A DNA stretch of 64,000 nt, taken from positions 1 to 64,000 of the IMG/VR virus record IMGVR_UViG_3300028569_000019. One strand, given 5' to 3'. The DNA is from a virus. The translations under genes and the position numbers were made by a program. Under the pieces are notes generated by a model. That model saw only the letters and a program-made list of their open reading frames with translations. It was not told the origin of the DNA and did no database searches. How positions within the stretch are numbered: the stretch's first letter is position 1; every line of letters starts with the position of its first letter. Below are positions 4,343 to 19,572 of the stretch, in pieces.

Positions 4343-4417
4343 GCCTCCTAAGCATTGGTAGCGATGCAGAGGTTTTGTAAACCCCAGAGCTCGGCGCAAG
4401 CCCGGGAGGAGGCTCCA
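4343..4417 (+). tRNA. tRNA-Thr (anticodon TGT), altered D/T loops
   Basis: Acceptor GCCTCCT/AGGAGGC, discriminator T, CCA encoded. Anticodon loop TTTGTAA with one A-C mismatch in its stem. T-stem CTCGG/CCGGG with loop CGCAAGC, so positions 55-56 are GC and not TC. The D-loop TGGTAGCG places A18 G19 opposite them. 75 nt. Confidence 0.8.
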
Positions 4418-4515
4418 ATTTATAGTAATGGTGATATTGGTGTAACAGTTAGCATTTGAGTTTGTGAAACTCACGGAACGAGGGCAGCACTCGTATATCA
4501 CCCCAAATTTATAAT

Positions 4516-4594
4516 GGCCTCATCGTCTACGAATGTAATAGGATTCTGGATTCTCAATCCGGAGAACTCGGTTTGACTCCGAGTGAGGCTACCA
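4516..4594 (+). tRNA. tRNA-Glu (anticodon CTC)
   Basis: Acceptor GGCCTCA/TGAGGCT with a G1-U72 wobble, discriminator A, CCA encoded. Anticodon loop TTCTCAA. T-loop TTTGACT has T56 in place of C56, and the D-loop ACGAATGTAAT has AA and no GG, consistent with an A19-U56 replacement of G19-C56. 79 nt. Confidence 0.8.
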
Positions 4595-4601
4595 ATTTAA
4601 T

Positions 4602-4676
4602 TACCCTATCGTCTAGTAACTAGGACTAGTGTCCCGGACGACACTAACCTTGGTTTGAATCCAAGTGGGGTAACCA
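4602..4676 (+). tRNA. tRNA with an 8-nt anticodon loop, identity uncertain
   Basis: Acceptor TACCCTA/TGGGGTA, discriminator A, CCA encoded. Glu/Gln-like D-arm (TCGTCTAG...AGGAC). T-loop TTTGAAT with T56; the D-loop has AA where GG is usual. The anticodon stem AGTGT/ACACT encloses the eight bases CCCGGACG, with no U at the usual position 33. I cannot assign an anticodon; an inactive copy or a four-base-reading tRNA are both possible. Confidence 0.6.
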
Positions 4677-4682
4677 ATTTAT

Positions 4683-4760
4683 GCTGGTGTAGCTCAAATG
4701 GATTAGAGCGTTTGATTACGAATCAAAAGGTTGTAGGTTCAACTCCTACCATCAGCACCA
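4683..4760 (+). tRNA. tRNA-Arg (anticodon ACG), canonical
   Basis: Acceptor GCTGGTG/CATCAGC (one G-T pair), discriminator A, CCA encoded. D-stem GCTC/GAGC with GG in the loop. Anticodon loop TTACGAA. T-stem GTAGG/CCTAC with canonical loop TTCAACT. Confidence 0.95.
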
Positions 4761-4767
4761 TTTTAAT

Positions 4768-4842
4768 GGCCTATTCGACAACCAGCTAAGTCACTTGGCT
4801 TTCATCCAAGAGTAGCCGGGGCAGCACCGGCATAGGCTACCA
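4768..4842 (+). tRNA. tRNA-Glu (anticodon TTC), altered D/T loops
   Basis: Acceptor GGCCTAT/ATAGGCT with G1-U72, discriminator A, CCA. Anticodon stem CTTGG/CCAAG, loop CTTTCAT. T-stem GCCGG/CCGGC with loop GGCAGCA (G54 G55 C56, G58). The D-loop AACCAGCTAA reads A18 G19. Arms count to exactly 75 nt. Confidence 0.8.
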
Positions 4843-4844
4843 TT

Positions 4845-4931
4845 TTTGACGGCACTGTAGGGTGCAGTCGTAAGCAAGATCACCCCTAGCATAATCTGAA
4901 ACAGTGAAGCGTTAAGATCTTGACCGTCAAA
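4845..4931 (+). ncRNA. Structured RNA with a possible pseudoknot inside the tRNA array
   Basis: TTTGACGG at 4845-4852 pairs with CCGTCAAA at 4924-4931. Inside are ACTG/CAGT (4854-4857, 4865-4868) with the 7-nt loop TAGGGTG, and CAAGATC/GATCTTG (4875-4881, 4916-4922). The loop TAGGGTG is complementary, with one bulge, to CACCCCTA at 4881-4888. It is tRNA-sized but has no anticodon arm or CCA. It could be a decayed tRNA or a separate small RNA. Confidence 0.45.
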
Positions 4932-4939
4932 TATTTCAT

Positions 4940-5017
4940 ATCCGCCAATGTTCCAAGGATTAGGCGACAGGCTCTCCAAAAGCCCGTGGGTAAGTTCGAT
5001 TCTTACGGTGGATGCCA
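4940..5017 (+). tRNA. tRNA-Trp (anticodon CCA)
   Basis: Acceptor ATCCGCC/GGTGGAT, discriminator G as in other bacterial tRNA-Trp, CCA encoded. Anticodon loop CTCCAAA. T-stem GTAAG/CTTAC with canonical loop TTCGATT. The D-arm is poorly paired but keeps GG. Confidence 0.85.
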
Positions 5018-5042
5018 TTTTTTCAAATACATTAGGTGAAGG

Positions 5043-5204
5043 CAACGAACGTAGTTTAATTGGTAAAACAACCGCACGAATAAGCGGAAGTCATTCAGTT
5101 CGAATCTGAATCACTAGTTGAAGTAGTAAGTAATGTATTGACACTGATAGACATTGAATGTTATAATCTGACGAGGTTATAATTAGTAAGTGGAACGTTC
5201 GTTG
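5043..5204 (+). tRNA. tRNA-like element (Phe-like GAA) with displaced 3' acceptor strand
   Basis: A D-arm GTTT/AAAC with AATTGGTA loop, an anticodon-like CCGC/GCGG hairpin with the 8-nt loop ACGAATAA, and a canonical T-arm TTCAG/CTGAA with loop TTCGAAT occupy 5053-5110. The adjacent 3' bases do not pair with the 5' strand. Instead CAACGAACGT (5043-5052) is perfectly complementary to ACGTTCGTTG at 5195-5204, beyond an 84-nt segment that holds a sigma70 promoter. No CCA. It is either a decayed tRNA or an unusual precursor. Confidence 0.4.
5138..5167 (+). promoter_or_regulatory. Host-type sigma70 promoter for tRNA-Asn
   Basis: TTGACA at 5138-5143, 18-nt spacer, perfect TATAAT at 5162-5167. The next gene downstream is tRNA-Asn at 5229. 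Confidence 0.7.
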
Positions 5205-5228
5205 AAATCCAGTAAACATTTTTTTAAC

Positions 5229-5300
5229 TCCCCTGTAGTGTCAAAGTAGCACGGCTGGTTGTTACCCAGTTAGGTGAAGGTGCGAGTCCTTCTGGGGGAG
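5229..5300 (+). tRNA. tRNA-Asn (anticodon GTT), altered D/T loops, CCA not encoded
   Basis: Acceptor TCCCCTG/TGGGGGA, discriminator G, followed by CTT and not CCA. Anticodon stem GCTGG/CCAGT, loop TTGTTAC. T-stem GAAGG/CCTTC, loop TGCGAGT (T54, G55 C56). The D-loop TCAAAGTAG reads A18 G19. U1-A72 and G73 agree with bacterial tRNA-Asn. Confidence 0.8.
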
Positions 5301-5340
5301 CTTTCGTCAAAATAAAATACATTTTGACAGTTCACATCCA

Positions 5341-5348
5341 TATTTATT
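5341..5348 (+). promoter_or_regulatory. Putative late promoter box
   Basis: TATTTATT ending 3 nt before the ATG at 5352; no Shine-Dalgarno. Confidence 0.5.
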
Positions 5349-5351
5349 ATT

Positions 5352-6047
5352 ATGGATGTGAACCAAGATTTCAAATATACAATATATAAAACTACCAATA
5401 AAATTAACAACAAAGTTTATATTGGAATGCATAAAACAAAAAATCCATATGACAGTTATATGGGTTCTGGTAAATTATTCAAAAGAGCAGTAGGAAAATA
5501 TGGTGAAGAAAACTTTGTAAAAGAAGTTTTATTTATATTTGATACCGCTGAAGAAATGTTTGCGAAAGAAAAAGAAATAGTAAATCAATTATTTATTGAA
5601 TCAGATAATACATACAATATTATGGAAGGTGGATGTGGAGGTTATTCATATATAAATGAATCTGGTAAAAATTTGTATGGTCAGAACGGTGATATTAATC
5701 ACGGTGGAAAAAATTTATTAACTGGTAATAAAATAAAAGAATTTTTAATTGAAAAAGGATTATTTGAAGAATGGAAACAGAAAGTATCAACATCTTTAAA
5801 AGAAAAATGGAAACGAGATGGTTTTCATTGGACTGGTAGAAAACATAAAGATGAATCGAAAAAGAAAATGAGCGCAGATAGAAAAGGCAAATATACAGGT
5901 ATAGATAATTCAAATTATGGAAATTGTTGGGTTTATTCAGATTTAGAATCTAAGAATAAAACCATTAAAAAACAAGAATTAAATGATTACATAAATAATG
6001 GATGGAAACCGGGTATAAAAATGAAATATCATAAGAAAATTTCATAA
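5352..6047 (+). CDS. GIY-YIG homing endonuclease
   Basis: 231 residues. The N-terminal GIY-YIG nuclease motif is YTIYKTTNKINNKVYIGMH (residues 9-27), followed by a catalytic-core-like stretch ending in YNIMEGG. A NUMOD3-like DNA-binding segment, GRKHKDESKKKMS, lies around residues 164-176. Such phage proteins (T4 Seg family and relatives) are free-standing homing endonucleases that cut cognate DNA lacking the gene. It sits between two tRNA genes, with its own late-type box 3 nt before the ATG. The gene is very A-rich, unlike the structural genes, in keeping with recent mobility. Confidence 0.9.
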   Translation: MDVNQDFKYTIYKTTNKINNKVYIGMHKTKNPYDSYMGSGKLFKRAVGKYGEENFVKEVLFIFDTAEEMFAKEKEIVNQLFIESDNTYNIMEGGCGGYSYINESGKNLYGQNGDINHGGKNLLTGNKIKEFLIEKGLFEEWKQKVSTSLKEKWKRDGFHWTGRKHKDESKKKMSADRKGKYTGIDNSNYGNCWVYSDLESKNKTIKKQELNDYINNGWKPGIKMKYHKKIS

Positions 6048-6065
6048 TAATTTTTAAATTTCAAT

Positions 6066-6188
6066 TCCAGAGTAGCTCAATGGTAGAGCATGCGGCTGTG
6101 GGCCATAAAGTATTATTTAATAGAGAGTGCAAATCTCATAAGGCCAAAGTTAACCGCAGGGTTGGGGGTTCGAAACCCTCCTCTGGAG
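6066..6188 (+). tRNA. tRNA-Asn (or His) interrupted by 51 nt in the anticodon loop
   Basis: Exon 1 has acceptor TCCAGAG, D-arm GCTC/GAGC with GG, and anticodon stem TGCGG followed by CTGT. Exon 2 supplies TAA, CCGCA, T-arm GGGGG/CCCTC with loop TTCGAAA, and CTCTGGA plus discriminator G, with no CCA. Removing 6100-6150 gives loop CTGTTAA (GTT, Asn). Removing 6101-6151 gives CTGTGAA (GTG, His). U1-A72 and G73, and the sister tRNA-Asn at 5229, favour Asn. The insert is bounded by GGCC at both ends, which can pair, and holds a GAGA/TCTC hairpin. It is far too short for a group I intron. Confidence 0.65.
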
Positions 6189-6329
6189 CTCTTTCAATAG
6201 TTTTATATGATGTATGATATATGCTGATTAAGGGTTAGGCAGTTGATCAAATTGCAATAGTATGAACATAAAGTGCCTTAAGAAATTTAAATAATTTCAT
6301 TGTTCATTATACATTATATAATTTTTCAA

Positions 6330-6430
6330 TAGGGAGTAGTAATTGATAAAAAACAAGCTAGATAGATGAGCAAGTTCGAAATTGCTTGAACGGTGTGAAA
6401 TCCTAGTGTAAGTTTAGATGAACTGCCCTA
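6330..6430 (+). other. tRNA-like hairpins in a gene-free stretch
   Basis: The 250 bases between two tRNAs (6189-6439) hold no ORF. TAGGGAGT (from 6330) can pair with ACTGCCCTA (6422-6430). Inside, AGCAA/TTGCT (6369-6373, 6382-6386) encloses the 8-nt loop GTTCGAAA. There is no recognisable T-arm or CCA. Probably a decayed tRNA or an unassigned small RNA. Confidence 0.3.
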
Positions 6431-6439
6431 CTAATTTTC

Positions 6440-6526
6440 GGGAGTATCGCATAGCAGCAATTGCTGGACACTGTAAATGTCCCGGCCTAACGGCCTTCGT
6501 AGGTGCAAGTCCTACTGCTCCCACCA
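6440..6526 (+). tRNA. tRNA-Tyr (anticodon GTA), altered D/T loops
   Basis: Acceptor GGGAGTA/TGCTCCC, discriminator A, CCA encoded. Anticodon stem GGACA/TGTCC, loop CTGTAAA. Long variable arm GGCC-TAAC-GGCC, normal for bacterial Tyr. T-loop TGCAAGT (G55), D-loop with A18 G19 (CAGC). 87 nt. Confidence 0.85.
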
Positions 6527-6531
6527 TTTTT

Positions 6532-6617
6532 GGGGTATTATACTGATAAAGACGCAGAACGGTCTGTAAAACCGTTGCCTTCGGGCTGGGTAGGAGCATT
6601 ACCTACATACCCCACCA
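6532..6617 (+). tRNA. Second tRNA-Tyr (anticodon GTA), altered D/T loops
   Basis: Acceptor GGGGTAT/ATACCCC, discriminator A, CCA. Anticodon stem ACGGT/ACCGT, loop CTGTAAA. Variable arm GCC-TTCG-GGC. T-stem GTAGG/CCTAC with loop AGCATTA (A54, G55 C56, T58). D-loop ATAAAGACG with A18 G19; the D-stem is only 3 bp. Why two Tyr genes are present is unclear. Confidence 0.75.
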
Positions 6618-6624
6618 TTTCAAT

Positions 6625-6698
6625 TGACCGTTAATTCAATAGCAGAATAGACGACTGATAATCGTCCTACGCCGGAGCGTAACCGGCACGGTCAACCA
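6625..6698 (+). tRNA. tRNA-Ile (anticodon GAT), altered D/T loops
   Basis: Acceptor TGACCGT/ACGGTCA, discriminator A, CCA. D-stem ATTC/GAAT with loop AATAGCA (A18 G19). Anticodon stem GACGA/TCGTC, loop CTGATAA. T-stem GCCGG/CCGGC with loop AGCGTAA (A54, G55 C56, T58). 74 nt, all stems perfect. Confidence 0.85.
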
Positions 6699-6700
6699 AT

Positions 6701-6770
6701 TTTGTTAGTAAGTGTTGGGTTCAATCCCCTTTACTCTGTGATCACTGGTGAGAACATAACTACTAACAAA
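6701..6770 (+). other. Hairpin-bounded tRNA-like element
   Basis: TTTGTTAGTA (6701-6710) pairs perfectly with TACTAACAAA (6761-6770). Inside is a T-arm-like GGG-TTCAATC-CCC right after the 5' strand and a GTGATCAC palindrome. No anticodon arm or CCA can be placed. It could be a decayed tRNA or a small RNA. Confidence 0.35.
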
Positions 6771-6776
6771 TTCAAC

Positions 6777-6856
6777 GGATCAGTATTGGCCACGCCTTCT
6801 AAGCGATAGGTGCATAATTGGATAAGTGTTGGGTTCGACTCCCACCTGATCCACCA
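6777..6856 (+). tRNA. tRNA-Arg-like gene (TCT) with disordered arms
   Basis: Perfect acceptor GGATCAG/CTGATCC, discriminator A, CCA, and a T-arm with canonical loop TTCGACT. The anticodon-like loop CTTCTAA on a CGC/GCG stem would read AGA. The usual D-arm is missing before it, and a D-loop-like AATTGGATA follows it. The fold is therefore unusual, and I am unsure whether it is functional. Confidence 0.5.
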
Positions 6857-6896
6857 AATATTTAAAAATAAATGAAACTATTTGCTCTATACAACA

Positions 6897-6904
6897 TATT
6901 TATT
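6897..6904 (+). promoter_or_regulatory. Putative late promoter box
   Basis: TATTTATT ending 5 nt before the ATG at 6910. Confidence 0.5.
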
Positions 6905-6909
6905 TAGAT

Positions 6910-7545
6910 ATGATGAAATGTAAATGGTGTTTGATTAATTTTGATTTAAATGATAAACCTAAAGGATGGGCAGCTGCACACACAAGATGGTGTGATCACA
7001 ATCCAAAAAAACAAGAGTATATAGATAAACTAAAATCTGCAAATAGAACACATTTAATGTGTGAATCAAAAAAAATAAGCGGAAAGACAAATCAATTCAC
7101 AAAAGCAAAAGTAAACGGATTTACTTTAACTAGTAAATTAAAAGGTAGAAAAAATATTGCTCTAAAAGGAAAGAAACATTCAATTCAAAGTAAGCTGAAT
7201 ATGAGTAAAGGATCTTTAAAATCTACTCATAGAAGATTACGCAGAGGAATTATTCAATATAAAGGAATAACACTCGATTCTAGTTGGGAATTAGAATTAG
7301 CTAAAAGATTGGATGATTTAAACATTAAATGGAATAGACCTGATCCATTAAAATGGAAAGATTCCAATGGTTTAGAACACAATTATTTTCCTGATTTCTA
7401 TTTAATAGACTATAATCTATATTTAGATCCAAAAAATCCAGGAGCATATAAAGTTCAAAAATCAAAAATTGATATACTGCTTAATACTTACAATAATATT
7501 TTAATTTTAAAAACTTTAGAAGAATGCAAAGGATTTAAAATTTGA
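6910..7545 (+). CDS. Homing-type endonuclease, zinc finger plus PD-(D/E)XK-like domain
   Basis: 211 residues. An N-terminal Cys/His motif (CKWCLINF, then HTRWCDH, residues 4-29) is a probable zinc finger. A basic middle with repeated K-G-K/R segments (KLKGRKNIALKGKKHS) resembles NUMOD DNA-binding repeats. The C-terminal part has SSWELELAKRLDDLNIKW (about 124-141) and YFPDFYLIDYNLYLDPK, the layout of small PD-(D/E)XK nucleases. The protein at 16929-17786 has the same SSWELA...PDF order. It lies just after a tRNA, has its own late-type box, and is very AT-rich. It converges with the next gene, overlapping by 11 nt. Confidence 0.75.
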   Translation: MMKCKWCLINFDLNDKPKGWAAAHTRWCDHNPKKQEYIDKLKSANRTHLMCESKKISGKTNQFTKAKVNGFTLTSKLKGRKNIALKGKKHSIQSKLNMSKGSLKSTHRRLRRGIIQYKGITLDSSWELELAKRLDDLNIKWNRPDPLKWKDSNGLEHNYFPDFYLIDYNLYLDPKNPGAYKVQKSKIDILLNTYNNILILKTLEECKGFKI

Positions 7546-8317: not shown

Positions 8318-8368
8318 ATTTGATATATATGGTAGAATAGATACAAGATTGAATTTAAAGTTTTCTTT

Positions 8369-8444
8369 GCCTTCATAGTATAAAAGTATTACACATCATT
8401 GGTAATGATGAAACGTAGGGGGGCGGTACCTACTGGAGGCTCCA
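8369..8444 (+). tRNA. tRNA-Thr (anticodon GGT), altered D/T loops
   Basis: Acceptor GCCTTCA/TGGAGGC, discriminator T, CCA encoded. Anticodon stem CATCA/TGATG, loop TTGGTAA. D-stem GTA/TAC with AAAG in the loop (A18 G19). T-stem GTAGG/CCTAC encloses nine bases, GGGGCGGTA, two more than usual; its last seven match the GGC-type loops of sister tRNAs. Confidence 0.75.
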
Positions 8445-8497
8445 TTTTAAAAATATATTTAGAAGTGTGTGGATTATATATATAGTAAAATAAATTT

Positions 8498-9301: not shown

Positions 9302-9307
9302 TTTAAT

Positions 9308-9381
9308 GCCTATATAGCTTAAAGGTAAAGCATCAATTTCGTAAACAACGATCACAGGTTCGATTCCAGTAACAGGCTCCA
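9308..9381 (+). tRNA. Degenerate tRNA-Thr-like gene (CGT)
   Basis: D-stem GCTT/AAGC with AAAGGTA loop, anticodon-like loop TTCGTAA, T-loop TTCGATT, discriminator T and CCA are present. The acceptor GCCTATA/AACAGGC has two mismatches, the T-stem has one, and the anticodon stem hardly pairs. Probably decaying or needing an unusual fold. Confidence 0.5.
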
Positions 9382-9389
9382 ATTTTAAT

Positions 9390-9480
9390 GCACGACGACG
9401 GAGCTAGTGAACTGAGATGTCTGCAAAACATCATTGTATGAAAATACATATGCAAGGAGCGTAACCTTGGTCGTGCTCCA
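9390..9480 (+). tRNA. tRNA-Cys (anticodon GCA) with a long variable arm
   Basis: Acceptor GCACGAC/GTCGTGC, discriminator T (a Cys identity base), CCA encoded. Anticodon stem GATGT/ACATC, loop CTGCAAA. The variable region is 20 nt with a TGTAT/ATACA stem, a class II feature not normal for Cys. T-stem CAAGG/CCTTG with loop AGCGTAA (A54, G55 C56, T58); D-loop AGCTAGTGAA with A18 G19. Confidence 0.8.
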
Positions 9481-9529: not shown

Positions 9530-9534
9530 TATAT

Positions 9535-14032: not shown

Positions 14033-14137
14033 ATAACGAACGGGGTTGAAACTCTATCTGATGTCCCCAACATAAGTTAAAACATTTGATCGGTCACTGG
14101 GTGTTATGCTGAAATACAGAACCCATCTGGCGATAAT
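14033..14137 (+). ncRNA. Conserved structured small RNA, copy 2
   Basis: Hairpin 1 is GGGG/CCCC (14042-14045, 14065-14068) around a loop with TGAAACTCTATCTG. Hairpin 2 is TGGGT/ACCCA (14098-14102, 14121-14125) around GTTATGCTGAAATACAGA. It ends GGCGATAAT, as copy 1 at 4170-4293 does. It sits between an attenuator-like leader plus TTGACA promoter and a tRNA, like copy 1. The loops are conserved while the first stem has compensatory changes. Confidence 0.6.
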
Positions 14138-14166: not shown

Positions 14167-14240
14167 GGGGGTTTAGTTTAAAAGCAAAACAGTAGTTTTA
14201 CACACTTCAAACGGTGGAGCATTACCATCAACCCCTACCA
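14167..14240 (+). tRNA. tRNA-Val (anticodon TAC), altered D/T loops
   Basis: Acceptor GGGGGTT/AACCCCT with G1-U72, discriminator A, CCA. D-stem GTTT/AAAC with loop AAAAGCA (A18 G19). Anticodon stem GTAGT/ACTTC (one T-T mismatch), loop TTTACAC. T-stem GGTGG/CCATC, loop AGCATTA (A54, G55 C56, T58). Confidence 0.75.
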
Positions 14241-14308: not shown

Positions 14309-15004
14309 ATGAAAAGTAAAATTTGGAATATTTCAACGGAGGAATTTAAAAAAATTATAAAAAACAATTGTTGTATGGCAGATGTTTGTAGAACTTTGAA
14401 TATGAGAAAAGAGGGTGGTAATTATAGAACTATTAAACGTAGAATTGAATTTGAAAAAATTGATACTTCACATTTTCTTTCCAAAAAAGAAATTTTTTCA
14501 ATTAAAAATGTAAATACAGTTTCAAAAGATGAACTTTTACTTAGATTAAAAGAAAATACTGACATAGAAACTGTGTGGCTTAAAAATAAATTAATAAAAT
14601 TCAATTTATTTGACAATAAATGTGCAGAATGTTCTATAAAAGATTTTTGGAATAATAAACCACTTAAATTACAATTAGATCACATTGATGGTGATCATTT
14701 TAATAATACATTATCTAATCTTAGATTATTATGTCCAAATTGTCATTCACAGACTCATACATTTTGTGGGAAATCTAAAAAAACTAAAAAATATAAATGT
14801 TCAGAATGTAACACTGAAACAAGTGGTTATACAAATATTTGTAGAACGTGTTCAATGAAAAAACTAAGAAAAGTTGAAAGACCAACAAAAGATGTTTTAC
14901 AACAAGAAATTAAAAATAATACATTTATATCACTTAGTAAAAAATACGGTGTATCAGATAATGCAATTAGAAAATGGTGTAAATATTATTCAATAGATTT
15001 TTAA
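14309..15004 (+). CDS. HNH homing endonuclease with C-terminal helix-turn-helix
   Basis: 231 residues. An HNH core lies at about residues 105-150: CAECSIKDFW, LQLDHIDGDHFNNTLSNLRL, CPNCHSQTHTF, with paired Cys for zinc. A second zinc knuckle (CSECNTE, CRTCS) follows. The C-terminus SLSKKYGVSDNAIRKWCKYY is a helix-turn-helix of the kind that gives site specificity. Paralogue of 15846-16526. It stops 1 nt before a complete tRNA-Pro, so its insertion site is at the 5' edge of that tRNA. Very AT-rich. Confidence 0.9.
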   Translation: MKSKIWNISTEEFKKIIKNNCCMADVCRTLNMRKEGGNYRTIKRRIEFEKIDTSHFLSKKEIFSIKNVNTVSKDELLLRLKENTDIETVWLKNKLIKFNLFDNKCAECSIKDFWNNKPLKLQLDHIDGDHFNNTLSNLRLLCPNCHSQTHTFCGKSKKTKKYKCSECNTETSGYTNICRTCSMKKLRKVERPTKDVLQQEIKNNTFISLSKKYGVSDNAIRKWCKYYSIDF

Positions 15005-15005
15005 T

Positions 15006-15083
15006 CCATCCGTCGCCTAACTTGGTATGGCACTTCATTTGGGGTGAAGAATAATAGGCGTTCAAATCGCCTCGGGTGGACCA
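15006..15083 (+). tRNA. tRNA-Pro (anticodon TGG), canonical
   Basis: Acceptor CCATCCG/CGGGTGG with C1-G72, discriminator A and CCA. D-stem GCC/GGC with GG. Anticodon stem CTTCA/TGAAG, loop TTTGGGG. T-stem AGGCG/CGCCT, loop TTCAAAT. Confidence 0.9.
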
Positions 15084-15090
15084 TTTTAAC

Positions 15091-15168
15091 GGCTATGTAG
15101 ACCAACTGGAAGGAGTCGTCTGTCTTAGAAACAGAATAGTATTGGTTCAAATCCAATCATAGCTACCA
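15091..15168 (+). tRNA. tRNA-Leu (anticodon TAG) copy 1, short variable loop
   Basis: Acceptor GGCTATG/CATAGCT (G1-U72), discriminator A, CCA. Anticodon stem TCTGT/ACAGA, loop CTTAGAA, so codon CUA. The variable loop is only ATAGT, five bases, whereas bacterial tRNA-Leu normally has a long arm. T-stem ATTGG/CCAAT, loop TTCAAAT. First of three tandem copies. Confidence 0.8.
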
Positions 15169-15177
15169 TTTTGTAAT

Positions 15178-15255
15178 GGCTACGTAGCCCAACTGGAAGG
15201 AGTCGTCTGTCTTAGAAACAGAATAGTATTGGTTCAAATCCAATCATAGCTACCA
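15178..15255 (+). tRNA. tRNA-Leu (anticodon TAG) copy 2, hybrid of its neighbours
   Basis: Same anticodon arm as copies 1 and 3. The 5' acceptor strand GGCTACG matches copy 3, but the 3' strand CATAGCT matches copy 1, which leaves one C-A mismatch. It looks like a recombinant between the flanking copies. Confidence 0.75.
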
Positions 15256-15264
15256 TTTTGTAAT

Positions 15265-15342
15265 GGCTACGTAGCCCAACTGGAAGGAGGCGTCTGTCTT
15301 AGAAACAGAATAGTACTGGTTCGAATCCAGTCGTAGCTACCA
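15265..15342 (+). tRNA. tRNA-Leu (anticodon TAG) copy 3
   Basis: Acceptor GGCTACG/CGTAGCT, compensatory to copy 1, discriminator A, CCA. Anticodon loop CTTAGAA; five-base variable loop; T-stem ACTGG/CCAGT, loop TTCGAAT. Confidence 0.8.
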
Positions 15343-15351
15343 ATTTTTTGT

Positions 15352-15444
15352 GGATGATAGGCAGATATAAGCTGGCTGCACTAGTCTTGAAAACTAGGTC
15401 CGTCTAAAAAACGGAGGTCCGGGCAGTACGGACATCATCCGCCA
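15352..15444 (+). tRNA. tRNA-Ser (anticodon TGA), altered D/T loops
   Basis: Acceptor GGATGAT/ATCATCC, discriminator G (Ser), CCA. D-stem GCAG/CTGC; loop ATATAAGCTGG with A18 G19. Anticodon stem CTAGT/ACTAG, loop CTTGAAA. Long variable arm CCGT/ACGG. T-stem GTCCG/CGGAC, loop GGCAGTA (G55 C56). Confidence 0.85.
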
Positions 15445-15461
15445 TTTTAATACAACTCCAC

Positions 15462-15490
15462 TTGACAATGGAACCGAAGACTGATAATAT
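15462..15490 (+). promoter_or_regulatory. Host-type sigma70 promoter
   Basis: TTGACA at 15462-15467, 17-nt spacer, TAATAT at 15485-15490, upstream of tRNA-Ser(GCT). Around it AACTCC pairs with GGAGTT (15508) and TTGACA with TGTCAA (15514), a pseudoknot-like order whose meaning is unclear. Confidence 0.5.
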
Positions 15491-15528
15491 CGTCTCTTGA
15501 AGAAATCGGAGTTTGTCAAAAGATTTAT

Positions 15529-15619
15529 GGAAAGGTGTCTGAGTGGTCTAAAGAGACAGTTTGCTAAACTGTTGTGGCCTAAAAAACCACCGAGGGTTCG
15601 AATCCCTCCCTTTCCGCCA
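15529..15619 (+). tRNA. tRNA-Ser (anticodon GCT), canonical
   Basis: Acceptor GGAAAGG/CCTTTCC, discriminator G, CCA. Anticodon stem ACAGT/ACTGT, loop TTGCTAA. Long variable arm GTGG/CCAC. T-loop TTCGAAT; GG in the D-loop. Confidence 0.95.
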
Positions 15620-15622
15620 TTT

Positions 15623-15696
15623 GCGGGTATAGCTTAGTGGTAAAGCGCCAGTCTTCCAAACTGGCAAGGTGAGTTCGATTCTCACTACCCGCTCCA
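15623..15696 (+). tRNA. tRNA-Gly (anticodon TCC), canonical
   Basis: Acceptor GCGGGTA/TACCCGC, discriminator T, CCA. D-stem GCTT/AAGC with GG. Anticodon stem CCAGT/ACTGG, loop CTTCCAA. T-stem GTGAG/CTCAC, loop TTCGATT. Its 3' acceptor strand is the same as that of the orphan tRNA fragment at 17790. Confidence 0.95.
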
Positions 15697-15703
15697 ATTT
15701 AAC

Positions 15704-15778
15704 TGGGGATTGATTGTAATAGTAGCAAATCAGACTTTGAATCTGAGAGAATCGGAGCGTAACCGGTATCCCCTGCCA
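15704..15778 (+). tRNA. tRNA-Gln (anticodon TTG), altered D/T loops
   Basis: Acceptor TGGGGAT/ATCCCCT with a terminal T-T mismatch (weak first pair is normal for Gln), discriminator G, CCA. Anticodon stem TCAGA/TCTGA, loop CTTTGAA. D-stem TTG/CAA, loop TAATAGTAG (A18 G19). T-stem ATCGG/CCGGT, loop AGCGTAA. Confidence 0.8.
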
Positions 15779-15832
15779 TTTTATTTAATTAAATATTCAA
15801 TGATAAAATCGAACTTTCATTCTGTTCTTACA

Positions 15833-15840
15833 TATTTATG
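15833..15840 (+). promoter_or_regulatory. Putative late promoter box
   Basis: TATTTATG ending 5 nt before the ATG at 15846. Confidence 0.5.
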
Positions 15841-15845
15841 TATGT

Positions 15846-16526
15846 ATGAGTAAAAAAAGAACAAGTATTATCTGGAAAATTTCAAACGAAGATTTTGCCA
15901 ACTTAGTGAAAAATAGCAAAACTATGACTGAGTTACTAAAGCACTTTGGTATGGAAAATAAAGGTGGAAATTTTAAAACGTGTAAAAAAAGAATTAATGA
16001 ATTACAAATTAATACTAGTCATTTTCTTTCTAGGACACAATCAAGTACTTGGAAGAGACAAGTTACAAAAGAAGATTTATTAAAAAAATTGACAACAAAT
16101 TCGTGTTATAATAGAACAGATTTAAAAAAACGTTTAATTAAATTTGATATAATAAAATATGAATGTGCAAATTGTAAAAATAATGGCATCTGGGGAAATA
16201 AAAAATTAACTCTTCAATTAGAACATAAAAATGGAATATCAGATGATAATAGATTTGAAAATTTAGAATTTTTATGTCCTAATTGTCATAGTCAAACGTC
16301 TACATTTGCAGGTCGTTCTCTAAATAAACACCGCATTAAACCATCGGAAATAAATCCTGATTGGAGACATCAACCAAGATATGAAAAAAGAAAAGTTGAT
16401 AGACCTTCAAAAGAAATTTTAGAAAAAGAAATTAAAGAAAATACTATGGTTAGTCTTGGGAAGAAATACGGTGTATCGGATAATTCCATAAGAAAATGGT
16501 GTAAAAATTATGGTATCAATTTATAA
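15846..16526 (+). CDS. HNH homing endonuclease, paralogue of 14309-15004
   Basis: 226 residues. The N-terminal third shares the WKIS-E-F...GGN-TCKKRI layout with 14309-15004. The HNH core is CANCKNNGIWGNKKLTLQLE, HKNGISDDNRFENLEFLCPN, CHSQTSTF (about 100-150). The C-terminus VSLGKKYGVSDNSIRKWCKN is the same helix-turn-helix with few changes. The two differ enough not to be a recent tandem copy. It follows the tRNA-Gln gene, with its own late-type box. Confidence 0.9.
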   Translation: MSKKRTSIIWKISNEDFANLVKNSKTMTELLKHFGMENKGGNFKTCKKRINELQINTSHFLSRTQSSTWKRQVTKEDLLKKLTTNSCYNRTDLKKRLIKFDIIKYECANCKNNGIWGNKKLTLQLEHKNGISDDNRFENLEFLCPNCHSQTSTFAGRSLNKHRIKPSEINPDWRHQPRYEKRKVDRPSKEILEKEIKENTMVSLGKKYGVSDNSIRKWCKNYGINL

Positions 16527-16626
16527 TGATGTGCGTGTTGGGTGGAAACGTCCAACAGCGTGAGGGACACGATACACCCCTGTATGTCTGACCCGGACGA
16601 ATCTGATCCAGATAGGATAGGGTAAA
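16527..16626 (+). other. Gene-free stretch with serial hairpins
   Basis: Between the HNH gene and the tRNA-Ala promoter there are GTTGG/CCAAC, CGTG-AGGGA-CACG, ATACA-CCCC-TGTAT and TCTG-ATC-CAGA hairpins in 100 bases. GC content is higher than in the flanking genes. No CCA, T-loop or ORF was found. Probably an unassigned structured RNA. Confidence 0.35.
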
Positions 16627-16634
16627 TTTTTAGT

Positions 16635-16663
16635 TTGACTTATACTATATATTGGTGTAAGAT
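16635..16663 (+). promoter_or_regulatory. Host-type sigma70 promoter for tRNA-Ala
   Basis: TTGACT at 16635-16640, 17-nt spacer, TAAGAT at 16658-16663. The predicted start is 1-2 nt before the tRNA at 16672. Confidence 0.6.
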
Positions 16664-16671
16664 TTTTAAAT

Positions 16672-16746
16672 GGGCTTGTGGTGCTAGTGGTAACACGACC
16701 GGTTTGCATCCGGTAATCTCCAGTTCGACCCTGGACAGGTCCACCA
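16672..16746 (+). tRNA. tRNA-Ala (anticodon TGC), canonical
   Basis: Acceptor GGGCTTG/CAGGTCC, discriminator A, CCA. Anticodon stem ACCGG/CCGGT, loop TTTGCAT. T-stem with loop TTCGACC; GG in the D-loop. Confidence 0.9.
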
Positions 16747-16795
16747 TTTTAAATTAATGTATGTTGATTAGTTTCAACTATATATTAATCATACC

Positions 16796-16871
16796 GCACT
16801 AGTAGCTCAATTGGTAGAGCGTATCGTTGCCAACGATAAGGTTGTCGGATCGTACCCGACCTAGTGCTCCA
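16796..16871 (+). tRNA. tRNA-Gly (anticodon GCC)
   Basis: Acceptor GCACTAG/CTAGTGC, discriminator T, CCA. D-stem GCTC/GAGC with AATTGGTA. Anticodon stem TATCG/CGATA, loop TTGCCAA. T-stem GTCGG/CCGAC, loop ATCGTAC: A54 with T58, but T55 C56 kept, matching the GG in the D-loop. Confidence 0.9.
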
Positions 16872-16917
16872 TCTTAATTTTGTGTGATCAAAAATCACTT
16901 TTTGCTCCGAAGACTAC

Positions 16918-16925
16918 TATTTATT
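16918..16925 (+). promoter_or_regulatory. Putative late promoter box
   Basis: TATTTATT ending 3 nt before the ATG at 16929; this spacing supports that start over an earlier in-frame ATG at 16884. Confidence 0.5.
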
Positions 16926-16928
16926 AGT

Positions 16929-17786
16929 ATGAGTAAGATACCAGTAAATTGTAAAATCTGTAATGTTGAGTTTGTAAAATATGAAAGTGAAATAAAAAGA
17001 ACTAACAATCATTTTTGTTCTAATAAATGTTCAATATTTTTTAATACTCAATTAAAAAAAATATATTTAGAAAAAAGAAAAACAGATTATTATAGCAGTC
17101 CAAAAAAATGTATAAATTGTGAAAATATAATTGATTTTGAAAATAAAATTAAAAATAAATATTGTTCTGTAAGATGTACTGCGATTTATACTCAAAAAAA
17201 TGGAGGACATTGTAAATGGTCTAACGACGATAAAAAAAGATTAGCTGAATTGGCAAAAAACAATTCTAAATTTTGTGGTTGGAATAGAAAAGAAAAAATT
17301 AAAAAAGAATGTGAGACTTGCAAAAAAGAATTTGAAGTGATACCATCTTTAAAAGATAGAAATTGTTGTTCACGACAATGTAAAAATGAATGGATAAAAA
17401 AAACAGATTATCTTAAAAATAAAGGACTCGGAGGATATCGTATAAATAGTGGAACTAGTAAAAGAGGTTGGTATAAAGGATATTTTTGTGGTAGTAGTTG
17501 GGAATTGGCGTGGGTAATATATAATTTAGAACACAATATACAATTTAAACGAAATACAGATAGTTTTGAATATACGTATAATGGAACAATCAAAAAATAT
17601 TATCCAGATTTTAAAATAGACGATGTTTATATTGAAATAAAAGGATATCATTCAAAACAATTTGACGCAAAACAATTACAATTTCCACACAAATTAAAAG
17701 TTTTTCACAAATCGGAATTAAAAGAAATTTTAAAGTATGTAAAAGATAAATATGGGAAAAATTTTACATACTTATATGGGAAGTGA
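16929..17786 (+). CDS. Homing-type endonuclease, zinc knuckles plus PD-(D/E)XK domain
   Basis: 285 residues from the chosen ATG. An earlier ATG at 16884 would add 15 residues, but it has no promoter box and overlaps the leader. Zinc-knuckle pairs (CKICNVEF, CSNKCS, CINCEN, CSVRCTAIYTQK, CETCKKEF, CSRQCK) fill residues 6-160. The C-terminal domain has CGSSWELAWVIYNLEHNI, YYPDFKIDD and VYIEIKGYH, a PD...E-x-K nuclease core. Modules are shared with 9535 (CTAIYTQK) and 6910 (SSWEL). The gene is followed 4 nt later by an orphan tRNA 3' end. Confidence 0.8.
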   Translation: MSKIPVNCKICNVEFVKYESEIKRTNNHFCSNKCSIFFNTQLKKIYLEKRKTDYYSSPKKCINCENIIDFENKIKNKYCSVRCTAIYTQKNGGHCKWSNDDKKRLAELAKNNSKFCGWNRKEKIKKECETCKKEFEVIPSLKDRNCCSRQCKNEWIKKTDYLKNKGLGGYRINSGTSKRGWYKGYFCGSSWELAWVIYNLEHNIQFKRNTDSFEYTYNGTIKKYYPDFKIDDVYIEIKGYHSKQFDAKQLQFPHKLKVFHKSELKEILKYVKDKYGKNFTYLYGK

Positions 17787-17789
17787 TGT

Positions 17790-17817
17790 GCCGGTTCGAT
17801 TCCGGCTACCCGCTCCA
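17790..17817 (+). tRNA. Orphan 3' half of a tRNA-Gly
   Basis: T-stem GCCGG/CCGGC with loop TTCGATT, then TACCCGC, T and CCA. The acceptor strand matches tRNA-Gly(TCC) at 15623, but the T-stem differs, so it is a different gene. No 5' half precedes the endonuclease gene. Confidence 0.75.
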
Positions 17818-17825
17818 ATTTTATT

Positions 17826-19157
17826 ATGACTGGTTATAATTTCCCAAATATATGGGAGTCTTGTTTACAATTTAACATTGAACAAAAACCCGAAGAATTC
17901 AAATCTTTATTGGATTTTTTGAATGCAAACTCCAAAAAAAGAATCGCACTTGAAATAGGATCTAATTATGGTGGTTTTGCAGCTGGATTGTGTGAACTTT
18001 TTGATAAAGTTATAACGATTGATATAAAGCATAATCCTAATTTTGATTTACTCAAAAATAAATATTCAAATTACGAATATATAATTTCAGATTCCACCAG
18101 CAACGATACAATTAATTATTTAAAATCTCTCAACATTAAGTTTGATTTTATTTTTATAGATGGGGATCATTCATATAATGGAGTAAAATCTGATTATTTA
18201 AAGTTTAAGCAATTATTAAATTCAGATGGTTATTTAGGATTTCACGATGTCGTATCAAGTCCCGAAAATGAAGGCAACAATATTTTTGTAAGTAAGTTTT
18301 GGAGTGAGATCAAAACTCAATATATAGACAGTTACGAATTTATATCGGATAAAGCTACGAACGATTATTCCACCGATAATTTATTTCATTCGATTATGAA
18401 GAACCAAAGATACGAATCTTGGGGTGGAATTGGAATAGTTAAAAATTATCCTGTGTCAGTATTTTCTCACAATTATCTTAAAAATGATTGGGTGTCTATA
18501 ATAAAGAATCAATTTGAAAGAGTGGTTAAGTCTGGATTATACAATAGATGTGATCATTATTTTTGCGGTGTATATTCAGAATCAGATGAAGAATATTATA
18601 ATTTTCTTAAGATAGTAGATTCTTATGATAAAGATGTAAAAATAAAAGTTGTTCGTTATACCACGAATAAATTTGAATATAATACATTAATTAATTTGCA
18701 GAATTACTGTAAGCTAAATCCTAATGGGTGTGTTTTATATCATCACTCAAAAGGAACATCTAAAGTAATACAAACAGAATCAATAAAGTCTTGGCGTGAT
18801 TGTTTAGAATATCTAAACATAGATAATTGGCAAAAATCTGTCGATGTATTAAAGACTAAAAACTATGATGTTGTAGGTGGATTGTATGTTACACATTACG
18901 TTAGTCCGCAAAAAGAATATAGAAATTATTATTCTGGCAATTTTTGGTGGGGTGATTGTGAATATATAAATAGATTGCCAAATTTATCTTTGACTTTTGT
19001 AGATACGATGTATAATGGAGATATGTCAGACCATCGTATGGCGTGTGAGTTATGGATAGGTAAAGGATGGCACCGATGGTTAAACCACTATAGTGAATAT
19101 GTGGTGGGATGGGAGACTCACATTTTTGATTCTAAGAAATATAAAGTATTTGGATAA
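17826..19157 (+). CDS. SAM methyltransferase fused to a glycosyltransferase-like domain
   Basis: 443 residues. The N-terminal half is a class I methyltransferase: IALEIGSNYGGFAAGLCELF (about 38-57, motif I), VITIDI, and FDFIFIDGDHSYNGVKSDY (about 109-127), as in the Methyltransf_24 group often found with sugar biosynthesis. The C-terminal half (about 240-443) has VLYHHSKGTSK and NYYSGNFWWGDCEYINRLP, a pattern I have seen in uncharacterised glycan-synthesis proteins. Substrate unknown; modification of virion or cell-surface glycans is plausible. It begins 8 nt after the orphan tRNA end and is followed by the tmRNA. Confidence 0.7.
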   Translation: MTGYNFPNIWESCLQFNIEQKPEEFKSLLDFLNANSKKRIALEIGSNYGGFAAGLCELFDKVITIDIKHNPNFDLLKNKYSNYEYIISDSTSNDTINYLKSLNIKFDFIFIDGDHSYNGVKSDYLKFKQLLNSDGYLGFHDVVSSPENEGNNIFVSKFWSEIKTQYIDSYEFISDKATNDYSTDNLFHSIMKNQRYESWGGIGIVKNYPVSVFSHNYLKNDWVSIIKNQFERVVKSGLYNRCDHYFCGVYSESDEEYYNFLKIVDSYDKDVKIKVVRYTTNKFEYNTLINLQNYCKLNPNGCVLYHHSKGTSKVIQTESIKSWRDCLEYLNIDNWQKSVDVLKTKNYDVVGGLYVTHYVSPQKEYRNYYSGNFWWGDCEYINRLPNLSLTFVDTMYNGDMSDHRMACELWIGKGWHRWLNHYSEYVVGWETHIFDSKKYKVFG

Positions 19158-19186
19158 TACTTATATACAGTTCTTTAAAATTTTAT

Positions 19187-19572
19187 GGGGATGTGTAGAT
19201 TCGACATAGATAAATATCTATTGTTAGGCACGTAGAGGATAATAGTTGGCCTCTTTAAAAGTTCTATTGAAAATTAACTGCTGAAGATAACGTAGTTAGC
19301 TATGACTTCTCTTATGATGACGTTGTAGCCCTTGCAGCCTAAGTTGTTGCACATTCAATACAATGAAGTCTGATAGTTGTGTTGAGTGTAAATTATTGGA
19401 CTGGACCAAATATTTGATTTGCGTAAATGGTCGAGATATTAGTAAATCTTAAGGGTAATATTTTTAGATATTTTTCATTATTACTTCCCAACAATTTAAA
19501 ATATATAAACGTGTAGTCTGGCAGTAATAATTTTTTATGGACGCGGGGTGCGACTCCCCGCCATCTCCACCA
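19187..19572 (+). ncRNA. ssrA: tmRNA (one-piece, phage-encoded)
   Basis: The 5' end GGGGATG pairs with CATCTCC before ACCA at the 3' end. The D-like region GTAGATTCGAC corresponds to TGGATTCGAC in bacterial tmRNA, and the 3' part GGACGCGGGG...CCCCGCCATCTCC matches the tRNA-like half. The tag frame starts at GCT 19280 and ends TAA 19340-19342. It codes AEDNVVSYDFSYDDVVALAA, 20 residues, ending in the classical ALAA degradation signal. The T-loop is TGCGACT (G55) and the D-loop has AG in place of GG, the same swap as in the phage tRNAs. tmRNA rescues stalled ribosomes with SmpB; no SmpB gene is in this window. Confidence 0.93.
19280..19342 (+). CDS. tmRNA tag reading frame
   Basis: Resume codon GCT after ATTAACT, then 20 codons (AEDNVVSYDFSYDDVVALAA) and TAA. 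It is twice as long as the usual 10-residue proteobacterial tag, but the ALAA end is kept, so ClpXP-type proteases should recognise it. Confidence 0.85.
   Translation, partial: AEDNVVSYDFSYDDVVALAA

What the first reader, a model, noticed from the sequence alone, without database searches (positions are those of the whole stretch)
4343..19572. Coordinated swap of the D-loop/T-loop contact in about half the phage tRNAs and in its tmRNA
In normal tRNA, G18 pairs with U55, G19 with C56, and U54 with A58. Reading each gene by arms, I find three consistent classes. (1) GG in the D-loop with T55 C56: Arg(ACG), Trp, Pro, Leu x3, Ser(GCT), Gly x2, Ala. (2) A18 G19 with G55 C56: Thr(TGT), Thr(GGT), Glu(TTC), Tyr x2, Ile, Cys, Val, Ser(TGA), Gln, Asn; T-loops AGCGTAA, AGCATTA, GGCAGTA, GGCAGCA, TGCGAGT, TGCAAGT, CGCAAGC. 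(3) AA with T55 T56: Glu(CTC) and the 4602 tRNA. Within class 2, position 54/58 also changes together (A54 with T58, T54 with A58, G54 with G58). The tmRNA shows class 2 as well: TAGATTCGAC in place of TGGATTCGAC, and T-loop TGCGACT. Stems are intact, so this is not decay. It removes the sites of pseudouridine 55 (TruB) and, in many, m5U54 (TrmA). It might hide phage tRNAs from a T-arm-directed host nuclease or modification enzyme. I know of no described system with this set.
Basis: partly seen in the sequence, partly recalled or inferred. Interest (0 to 1): 0.92.

Follow-up and report, generated by a model that had tools for sequence, protein, structure and literature searches.

The report
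Phage tRNAs with rewritten elbow lock
About half of this phage's transfer RNAs, and its rescue RNA, hold their L-shape together with a different but matching set of bases at the elbow, and the same alternative lock turns up in many other phages and in spare tRNA sets of bacteria beside RNA-repair genes, which suggests a second, so far overlooked tRNA design.

Summary
It is neither chance nor decay: in 278 tRNAs with fixed D-loop geometry, not picked by my pattern, 18 against 55 reads 155/3/1/105, and tmRNAs of relatives carry both canonical or both swapped loops (4 versus 4). The swap is not phage-only. It is common in IMG/VR contigs, is the only Thr-GGT gene found in 19 of 32 genomes of a marine alphaproteobacterial family, and fills tRNA arrays in Verrucomicrobiota; 17 of 21 genomes examined (10 chosen for Ro60) have RtcB and/or Ro60 RNA-repair genes beside it. 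Chthoniobacter flavus carries such an array on top of a dispersed canonical set. I read it as an isosteric second elbow: the exposed 19-56 pair is kept, the buried 18-55/54-58 lock rewritten. Protection from enzymes that need the canonical T-loop is inferred. My literature searches showed no such natural class; laboratory suppressor tRNAs with G54-G58 are a recalled precedent. ARAGORN misses 334 of 725 such genes.

The parts
4343..4417 (+). tRNA-Thr(TGT), class 2; T-loop CGCAAGC
   Evidence: same gene in relatives
4516..4594 (+). tRNA-Glu(CTC), AA/UU elbow (U55-U56)
4602..4676 (+). tRNA-like gene with 8-nt anticodon loop, AA/UU elbow (T-loop TTTGAAT)
   Evidence: by eye; not listed by ARAGORN or by Rfam at E<=1
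4768..4842 (+). tRNA-Glu(TTC), class 2; T-loop GGCAGCA
5229..5301 (+). tRNA-Asn(GTT), class 2; T-loop TGCGAGT; no encoded CCA
6440..6526 (+). tRNA-Tyr(GTA), class 2; T-loop TGCAAGT
6532..6617 (+). second tRNA-Tyr(GTA), class 2; T-loop AGCATTA
   Evidence: by eye; not listed by ARAGORN or Rfam at E<=1
6625..6698 (+). tRNA-Ile(GAT), class 2; D-loop AATAGCA, T-loop AGCGTAA
8369..8444 (+). tRNA-Thr(GGT), class 2 in relatives (GGCGGTA); window copy has two extra G in the T-arm
9390..9480 (+). tRNA-Cys(GCA), class 2; T-loop AGCGTAA, long variable arm
14167..14240 (+). tRNA-Val(TAC), class 2; D-loop AAAAGCA, T-loop AGCATTA
15352..15444 (+). tRNA-Ser(TGA), class 2; D-loop ATATAAGCTGG, T-loop GGCAGTA
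15704..15778 (+). tRNA-Gln(TTG), class 2; T-loop AGCGTAA
19187..19572 (+). tmRNA, class 2 elbow: UAGAUUCGAC with T-loop UGCGACU
   Evidence: Rfam RF00023, 101.6 bits; co-switch in relatives
4683..4760 (+). tRNA-Arg(ACG), canonical elbow (in-genome control)
4940..5017 (+). tRNA-Trp(CCA), canonical elbow (in-genome control)
15006..15342 (+). canonical tRNA-Pro and three tRNA-Leu(TAG) (in-genome controls)
15529..15696 (+). canonical tRNA-Ser(GCT) and tRNA-Gly(TCC); Ser(GCT) is class 2 in relatives L273 and L279
16672..16871 (+). canonical tRNA-Ala(TGC); tRNA-Gly(GCC) with canonical 18/55 but A54-U58 (ATCGTAC)

Best explanation
These are working tRNAs (and a tmRNA) with a second, self-consistent elbow. 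The base threaded into the T-loop is A18 instead of G18 and meets G55 instead of U55; G19-C56 is kept (or, in related forms, replaced by A19-U56 or U19-A56); the 54-58 pair that closes the loop is exchanged among U-A, A-U, G-G and C-A. So the buried lock is rewritten while the exposed 19-56 pair, on which RNase P and the L1 stalk stack, stays the same. Shown: co-variation, intact stems, identity elements kept in Ala and mostly in His, a Thr-GGT gene with no canonical partner found in one bacterial family, and redundant arrays that often lie beside RtcB/Ro60. Inferred: (a) the fold is isosteric with the normal elbow; (b) phages and bacteria keep such tRNAs as a parallel supply for when the normal pool is damaged or under-modified; (c) the likely gain is freedom from enzymes that must open the canonical T-loop, meaning modification enzymes such as TruB and possibly tRNA-damaging effectors.
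For: 18/55 after removing pattern-selected tRNAs: 155/3/1/105, odds ratio 5425. 19/56: G-C 268, A-U 7, G-U 1, U-C 2. 54/58 mutual information 0.69 bits against at most 0.018 in 500 shuffles; 1.07 within G55 tRNAs. tmRNAs of window and relatives 4 versus 4. In relatives 8 of 29 anticodons occur in both classes. Pattern hits fold as cloverleafs in 83 of 83 (80 listed viral loci of 120 stretches) and 77 of 85 (80 listed cellular loci of 118 stretches). G3:U70 in 13 of 13 cellular class-2 tRNA-Ala; G-1:C73 in 25 of 38 class-2 tRNA-His against 14 of 20 canonical ones. Class-2 Thr-GGT in 19 of 32 genomes of one family and no canonical Thr-GGT found in these 19. RtcB on the contig of a class-2 tRNA in 11 of 21 and TROVE in 11 of 21 genomes, either in 17. 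C. flavus: 27 of 27 tRNAs read in the 30 best-scoring loci and 16 of 16 in the lower-scoring dispersed ones are canonical, against 13 of 14 array tRNAs with G55-C56.
Against: No expression, aminoacylation, modification or structure data. Most loci were fetched because they hold a class-2 tRNA, and sequences are related, so the counts are not independent. Ten of the 21 genomes were chosen because they had a TROVE match; among the other 11, RtcB is near in 6 and TROVE in 1. Five TROVE-RtcB pairs in the same genomes (G026 C41, G030 C465, G032 C43, G037 C110, G040 C1) lie on contigs without a pattern-matched class-2 tRNA, so the repair operon does not need such an array. In phage arrays class-2 and canonical tRNAs are mixed, so no whole-set replacement is seen there. 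The Thr-GGT case shows that the elbow can persist without any obvious damage setting. The arrays are patchy: 10 of 288 sampled Verrucomicrobiota genomes by a narrow pattern, with 8 matches of the reversed control pattern. 13 of 38 class-2 tRNA-His lack G-1:C73. Rare forms (G55-A56, G55-G56, mostly Arg) are not explained.
Confidence: 0.6

Rival explanations
1. A purely neutral structural alternative: A18-G55 is simply another way to lock the elbow, reached repeatedly through compensatory change and spread by horizontal transfer, without any protective role.
For: Class 2 is the only Thr-GGT found in 19 of 32 genomes of a marine alphaproteobacterial family; 54/58 swaps (A-U, A-A, G-G) also occur with the canonical 18/55 pair; related phages differ in class at 8 of 29 anticodons.
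Against: Concentration in phage arrays and in redundant bacterial arrays often beside RtcB/Ro60 is not expected of a neutral state: in C. flavus 13 of 14 array tRNAs read against 0 of 43 dispersed ones read; one genome only was examined this way.
Confidence: 0.3
2. Modification-free tRNAs: the swap makes tRNAs fold well without pseudouridine 55, m5U54 and Gm18, useful when many tRNAs are made in a burst (infection, stress) and modifying enzymes are limiting.
For: U55 is absent by definition and G18 nearly so (3 of 112 fixed-geometry G55 tRNAs); phage and stress-type arrays are burst settings; the Anabaena trn array is induced by translation inhibitors (PMC10272220).
Against: U54 is kept in most G55 tRNAs (T-A 318 of 558); no measurement of stability or modification.
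Confidence: 0.3
3. Stealth against a specific T-arm-directed nuclease, modification toxin or phage-defence effector.
For: Arrays next to RtcB/Ro60, i.e. genes that answer RNA damage; one array beside DndC/DndD; phage tRNAs are proposed to escape anticodon nucleases by loop changes (PMC10264068, abstract and passages).
Against: No such effector found; PADLOC gave hits only for the Dnd pair among 10 proteins scanned; the Thr-GGT case needs no attacker.
Confidence: 0.3
4. Decoys or sponges (tRNA-like RNAs not used in translation).
For: Odd genes in the window: an 8-nt anticodon loop at 4602, an insert in the Asn gene at 6066; 13 of 38 class-2 tRNA-His lack G-1:C73.
Against: Ala identity pair kept in 13 of 13; eight rich array loci span 9 to 16 amino acids each; only Thr-GGT found in 19 of 32 genomes of a family.
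Confidence: 0.05
5. Misalignment or decayed genes.
For: Thr(CGT) at 9308 has broken stems; Thr(TGT) D-loop is ambiguous.
Against: Fixed-geometry test, Rfam alignment, 83 of 83 cloverleafs.
Confidence: 0.01

Closest known systems
Canonical tRNA elbow (G18-Psi55, G19-C56, U54-A58), review PMC7912444 (passages read)
   Same: same cloverleaf, same positions, G19-C56 kept, R57 kept
   Different: A18-G55 instead of G18-U55; 54/58 exchanged in step. The same review mentions A54-A58 in eukaryotic initiator tRNA, so a single 54/58 exchange is known in nature
Laboratory-selected suppressor tRNAs with non-standard 54-58 (Zagryadskaya, Doyon, Steinberg 2003; seen in the reference list of PMC7912444, paper not held; content recalled)
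   Same: as recalled, G54-G58 and other purine pairs replace U54-A58 and stay functional
   Different: those are selected artificial libraries; here a natural, widespread class with the 18/55 swap
Anabaena PCC 7120 trn operon (PMC10272220, first of 8 parts and passages read)
   Same: a redundant tRNA array on top of a housekeeping set; rtcB and a slipin gene rise with it in the trcR mutant, like the RtcB and Band_7 genes beside the C. flavus array
   Different: elbow type of its tRNAs not checked (plasmid record not held); in 194 Cyanobacteria genomes 4 matched a narrow class-2 pattern, one of them tRNA-like, with 4 control matches
Phage tRNAs that evade anticodon nucleases (PMC10264068, abstract and passages; PMC11555353, search listing only)
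   Same: phage-encoded replacement tRNAs whose sequence departs from the host's
   Different: changes described there lie in the anticodon loop, not in the elbow; 'T-loop', 'T-arm' and 'D-loop' do not occur in the held text of PMC10264068
Interdigitated T-loops of RNase P, L1 stalk and T-box (PMC4810234, one section read)
   Same: a base inserted between residues 4 and 5 of a T-loop contacts its residue 2, the same places as 18 on 55
   Different: these are recognition modules that bind tRNA, not tRNAs

Membership tests
tRNA | cloverleaf with paired acceptor, D, anticodon and T stems | tested here: met
tRNA | elbow contact between D- and T-loops at 18/55, 19/56, 54/58 | tested here: met
   all three co-vary, with non-standard letters at 18/55; contact itself not seen
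tRNA | canonical letters G18-U55 | tested here: not met
   A18-G55 in class 2
tRNA | aminoacylation identity elements kept | tested here: met
   G3:U70 in 13 of 13 cellular class-2 Ala; G-1:C73 in 25 of 38 class-2 His (14 of 20 canonical); other amino acids not tested
tRNA | expressed and charged | not testable with these tools
   no RNA data
tmRNA | Rfam RF00023 score above gathering | tested here: met
   101.6 bits against 47
stress-induced redundant tRNA array (Anabaena trn type) | second tRNA set besides a housekeeping set | tested here: met
   C. flavus: 11 of 13 anticodons read in the array recur among the dispersed canonical tRNAs; not tested for the phage, whose host is unknown
stress-induced redundant tRNA array (Anabaena trn type) | linked or co-regulated with rtcB | tested here: inconclusive
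   linkage in 11 of 21 Verrucomicrobiota genomes; regulation not testable; phage array not tested for RtcB
stress-induced redundant tRNA array (Anabaena trn type) | silent, induced by translation inhibitors | not testable with these tools
   no expression data
nuclease-evading phage tRNA | escape from a named host tRNA nuclease | not testable with these tools
   no nuclease identified
tRNA-like decoy | loss of anticodon-loop or identity features | tested here: not met
   with 13 of 38 His lacking G-1:C73

The most novel reading that the evidence does not exclude
A second elbow code marks a parallel tRNA system shared by phages and by bacterial RNA-repair operons: reserve tRNAs (and tmRNA) whose buried D/T-loop lock is rewritten so that enzymes which must open or read the canonical T-loop, including tRNA-damaging effectors, cannot act on them, while ribosome and RNase P still accept them through the unchanged 19-56 face.
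Probability: 0.35. Interest if true: 0.95.

Novelty: new variant of a known kind. Interest (0 to 1): 0.87.

Why it matters
The G18-U55 contact is taught as near universal. A large natural class that replaces it in a coordinated way shows which elbow contacts translation really needs, and provides a ready-made test of what pseudouridine 55 and TruB are for. Gene finders are blind to much of it: with the same artificial flanks ARAGORN finds 790 of 801 canonical but only 391 of 725 class-2 tRNAs, so phage tRNA counts and codon-supply arguments may be biased. Linkage of such arrays to RtcB and Ro60 would tie reserve tRNA sets, RNA repair and phage tRNAs into one testable picture. Bacillus phages SP8 and SPO1L4 carry a stretch, without annotation, that reads by eye as a full class-2 tRNA (anticodon CAT), so a laboratory system exists.

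Tried and rejected
Chance or misalignment: rejected by the stem scan, fixed-geometry counts and Rfam alignment. Phage-only trait: rejected by cellular hits. Prophage contamination as the whole explanation of cellular hits: the L178 array lies beside ilvC, UbiA and HAD genes on a 290-kb contig, and C. flavus is a named strain; other cellular contigs were not checked one by one. Known defence genes beside arrays: only DndC/DndD at L264 among 10 proteins scanned. Plasmid origin of the C. flavus array: no match in PLSDB. Nearest named phage Mel-JY01: no tRNA at score 22 or more in the 90 kb examined of 190 kb. Class-2 queries against named phages: two gave nothing; one matched parts of 63 records, many annotated tRNA-Ile, not examined further; one gave SP8 and SPO1L4; one gave a tRNA-Lys with GG and A54-U58 in phage BUCT-ZZ01, overlapping a 'hypothetical protein'. 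Folds of five of six odd elements in the array are no better than shuffles (z -1.2 to 0.8); the Asn gene with insert has z -2.0. One search used a pattern with a wrong spacer and is void; one search repeats it correctly. On re-checking I found that the first C. flavus sample was the 30 best-scoring loci, which favours canonical genes, so I read the 16 lower-scoring dispersed ones too: all 16 have the canonical T-loop. The three canonical Thr-GGT pattern matches in the genomes that matter (one in G048, two in G552) are not tRNAs by ARAGORN or Rfam; two in G545, which lacks the class-2 gene, were not examined. I did not test TruB presence, host identity, RNA ligases in the phage beyond 10 ORFs (none found), or the number of independent switches on a tree.

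Papers: the listings of 10 searches and the passages I read showed no natural tRNA class with A18-G55; the library lacks most subscription papers, and three sought papers were not held.

Full report
WHAT THE WINDOW IS. The window is the first 64 kb of a 96,779-base linear IMG/VR virus record, a T4-like myovirus: Gp20 portal and Gp23 capsid, baseplate and SbcCD-like proteins. The nearest named phage found with a baseplate protein is Microcystis phage Mel-JY01, 40.6% identical. A protein search gave 29 related viral contigs; of 25 searched, 16 carry tRNAs above the Rfam cut-off.

THE OBSERVATION. ARAGORN sees 12 tRNAs in the window, only two of them class 2 (Asn 5229, Tyr 6440). A scanner that scores stems, loop lengths, CCA and U33 finds 18 genes on the + strand, none on the - strand and 0.45 per shuffle. 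Adding genes outside its rules gives 12 class-2 tRNAs plus the tmRNA; the second Tyr rests on reading by eye.

IT IS COORDINATED. To avoid alignment freedom I used only D-loops of exactly 7 nt with 4-bp stems, where positions 18 and 19 are fixed by geometry, and dropped the 195 tRNAs that match my own search pattern. Of 1,414 remaining tRNAs from the 286 sequences then held, 278 qualify: 18/55 is G-U 155, A-G 105, G-C 7, C-G 4, G-G 3, U-U 2, A-U 1, A-C 1; 19/56 is G-C 268, A-U 7, U-C 2, G-U 1. The 2x2 table of 18 against 55 is 155/3/1/105. The sample is biased: most loci were fetched because they hold at least one class-2 tRNA, and related sequences are not independent, so the p-value (4e-69) should not be read literally; the near absence of mismatched combinations is the point. 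Over all 1,414 tRNAs 54/58 is U-A 1100, A-U 114, G-G 104, C-A 54, A-A 22, others 20, with mutual information 0.69 bits against at most 0.018 in 500 shuffles. Changes at 54/58 also occur with canonical U55 (A-U 43, A-A 15, G-G 8 of 844), so the two swaps are separable.

RELATED GENES SWITCH AS A UNIT. In the relatives, 8 of 29 anticodons occur in both classes. The tmRNA is the cleanest case: window, L270, L275 and L277 have AG in the D-loop and UGC in the T-loop; L273, L274, L276 and L279 have GG and UUC. This may be as few as one switch, because some of these contigs are close. Further pairs in relatives show Watson-Crick exchange at 19/56: Val(TAC) AGTTGATA with TTTAAAT or TTTGAAT, and Arg(TCT) AATTGTATA with TTAGAGT.

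NOT PHAGE-ONLY. Viral contigs: 120 stretches, 80 listed, 83 matches in these, all 83 with at least 17 of 21 possible pairs. Genome contigs: 118 stretches, 80 listed, 85 matches, 77 with at least 17 pairs and 8 with 10 or fewer. By record titles the cellular hits are mainly Verrucomicrobiota and Alphaproteobacteria (marine and gut), then Patescibacteria, Bacilli and others.

IT WORKS IN TRANSLATION (INFERENCE). In the family of a genome labelled Pelagibacteraceae (another record with the hit is labelled HIMB59), 19 of 32 genomes have an identical class-2 Thr-GGT stretch. A canonical Thr-GGT pattern with T32 matches in 2 of 32 genomes, one of them (G552) among the 19, and both its matches are not tRNAs. 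In the 8 genomes also searched without fixing position 32, one canonical-looking match (G048) is not a tRNA either; that looser pattern matched no more often than its control in several genomes, so only the repeated identical stretch is meaningful. Genomes may be incomplete, and a canonical gene with C32 was not excluded in the other 11 of the 19. So class 2 is the only Thr-GGT found there. Identity elements: G3:U70 in 13 of 13 cellular class-2 tRNA-Ala; G-1:C73 in 25 of 38 class-2 tRNA-His, against 14 of 20 canonical ones.

RESERVE ARRAYS BESIDE RNA REPAIR. Many Verrucomicrobiota hits lie in dense arrays; eight rich ones that I tabulated hold 13 to 19 class-2-type genes (55-56 GC, GA or GG) spanning 9 to 16 amino acids within 8 kb. 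Chthoniobacter flavus Ellin428 has 63 tRNA hits: 16 in the array zone of contig C52, one weak hit that is no tRNA, and 46 elsewhere. In the 30 best-scoring loci a strict scan reads 27 distinct tRNAs, all canonical; the 16 lower-scoring dispersed ones are also all canonical; 13 of 14 array tRNAs read are G55-C56 and one is G55-A56; 11 of 13 array anticodons recur in the dispersed set. Beside the array lie a TROVE/Ro60 reading frame in pieces, a Band_7 protein and RtcB. In 21 genomes, RtcB lies on the same contig as a pattern-matched class-2 tRNA in 11 (ten at 2-5 kb, C. flavus at 16 kb, about 9.5 kb from the last tRNA hit of the array), TROVE in 11, either in 17. Ten of the 21 were chosen for a TROVE match; of the other 11, RtcB is near in 6, TROVE in 1, either in 7. 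Against a strict link: five TROVE-RtcB pairs in these genomes lie on contigs without a pattern match. The arrays are accessory: 13 of 288 sampled genomes of the phylum match a narrow pattern, 10 of these tRNA-like by eye, with 8 matches of the reversed control pattern. In Cyanobacteria 4 of 194 match, one tRNA-like, with 4 control matches.

MECHANISM. Reviews describe G18 stacked in the T-loop and paired with U55, and a D/T-loop pair as the flat outer face that ribosome, RNase P and T-boxes stack on (PMC7912444 passages; PMC4810234 start of abstract, passages and one section; PMC13254310 passages, with its own numbering). In class 2 the outer 19-56 pair is kept and the buried part is rewritten. 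In interdigitated T-loops an inserted base also contacts residue 2 of the T-loop, so an A on G at this place is plausible; this is reasoning, not a model. What selects for it is open. TruB cannot act where U55 is absent. U54 is kept in 318 of 558 G55 tRNAs as U-A, so escape from TrmA is not general. The setting (phage arrays, redundant arrays at repair genes) points to supply under tRNA damage or shortage. I put stealth, modification independence and neutrality at about equal weight; the first two do not exclude each other.

COMPARISON. The closest described system is the Anabaena trn operon: 26 tRNAs, silent, induced by translation inhibitors, repressed by TrcR together with rtcB, with a slipin gene also raised in the mutant (PMC10272220). 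Its tRNAs could not be checked. Phage tRNAs proposed to escape anticodon nucleases are described (PMC10264068), with changes in the anticodon loop. Jumbo phages with RtcB and TROVE are described (PMC7824862 passages). Laboratory suppressor tRNAs with altered 54-58 are recalled (Zagryadskaya 2003; seen only in a reference list). The listings of my 10 paper searches showed no natural A18-G55 class.

WHY IT WAS OVERLOOKED. Given identical artificial flanks, ARAGORN finds 790 of 801 canonical but 391 of 725 class-2 tRNAs. SP8 and SPO1L4, phages of B. subtilis, carry a stretch without annotation that reads by eye as a class-2 tRNA with anticodon CAT and no encoded CCA, which offers a laboratory test.

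VERDICT. Real, widespread, coordinated and, as far as I could search, not described as a natural class. Structure and use in translation are strongly supported by sequence; the benefit is inferred.

Noticed in passing
window 6066-6188: tRNA-Asn with an insert of about 54 nt inside the anticodon loop, seen in several relatives with the same length and Rfam score (52.5 bits); fold z-score -2.0. Possible mini-intron or protective extension.
   Followed up: partly
window 6776-6855: tRNA-like gene whose anticodon-arm-like hairpin (TCT) comes before a D-arm-like stretch: permuted order or large rearrangement; fold not better than shuffles.
   Followed up: partly
window 4602-4676: tRNA-like gene with an 8-nt anticodon loop CCCGGACG, possible frameshift suppressor.
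   Followed up: no
window 15091-15342: three near-identical tRNA-Leu(TAG) genes with a short variable loop instead of the long arm usual for Leu (the rule is recalled).
   Followed up: no
window 4180-4290 and 14035-14135: two similar non-coding elements sharing GGTGTTATGCTG(G/A)AATACAGAACCCA; further structured-looking stretches at 4848-4928, 15467-15517 and 16528-16640. Folding gave no support for the four that were folded (15467-15517 was not).
   Followed up: partly
1,105 held tRNAs with 4-bp D-stems: Positions 8/14 also co-vary: T8-A14 914, A8-T14 40, A8-A14 60, T8-T14 24, others 67; a second coordinated core swap (A8, T14, often G21) seen in Thr and Lys genes.
   Followed up: partly
cellular loci such as L160:4272, L177:2565, L179:5858: Rare T-loops with G55-A56 or G55-G56, many in tRNA-Arg (Arg is 25 of 37 cellular tRNAs outside the two main classes), with unusual D-loops; pairing logic not worked out.
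   Followed up: no
L001:13399-16347 (record 73399-76347): T4-like portal protein Gp20 with an intein that has a weak HNH match.
   Followed up: no
L002:8307-10085 (- strand): Ankyrin-repeat protein with a weak adenylate/guanylate cyclase domain match in a phage genome.
   Followed up: no
L264:577-3938: DndC and DndD genes directly beside a Verrucomicrobial class-2 tRNA array.
   Followed up: no
window 14309-15004 and 15846-16526: HNH endonuclease genes placed among the tRNAs; four more ORFs there (5352, 6910, 9535, 16884) have no Pfam match.
   Followed up: partly
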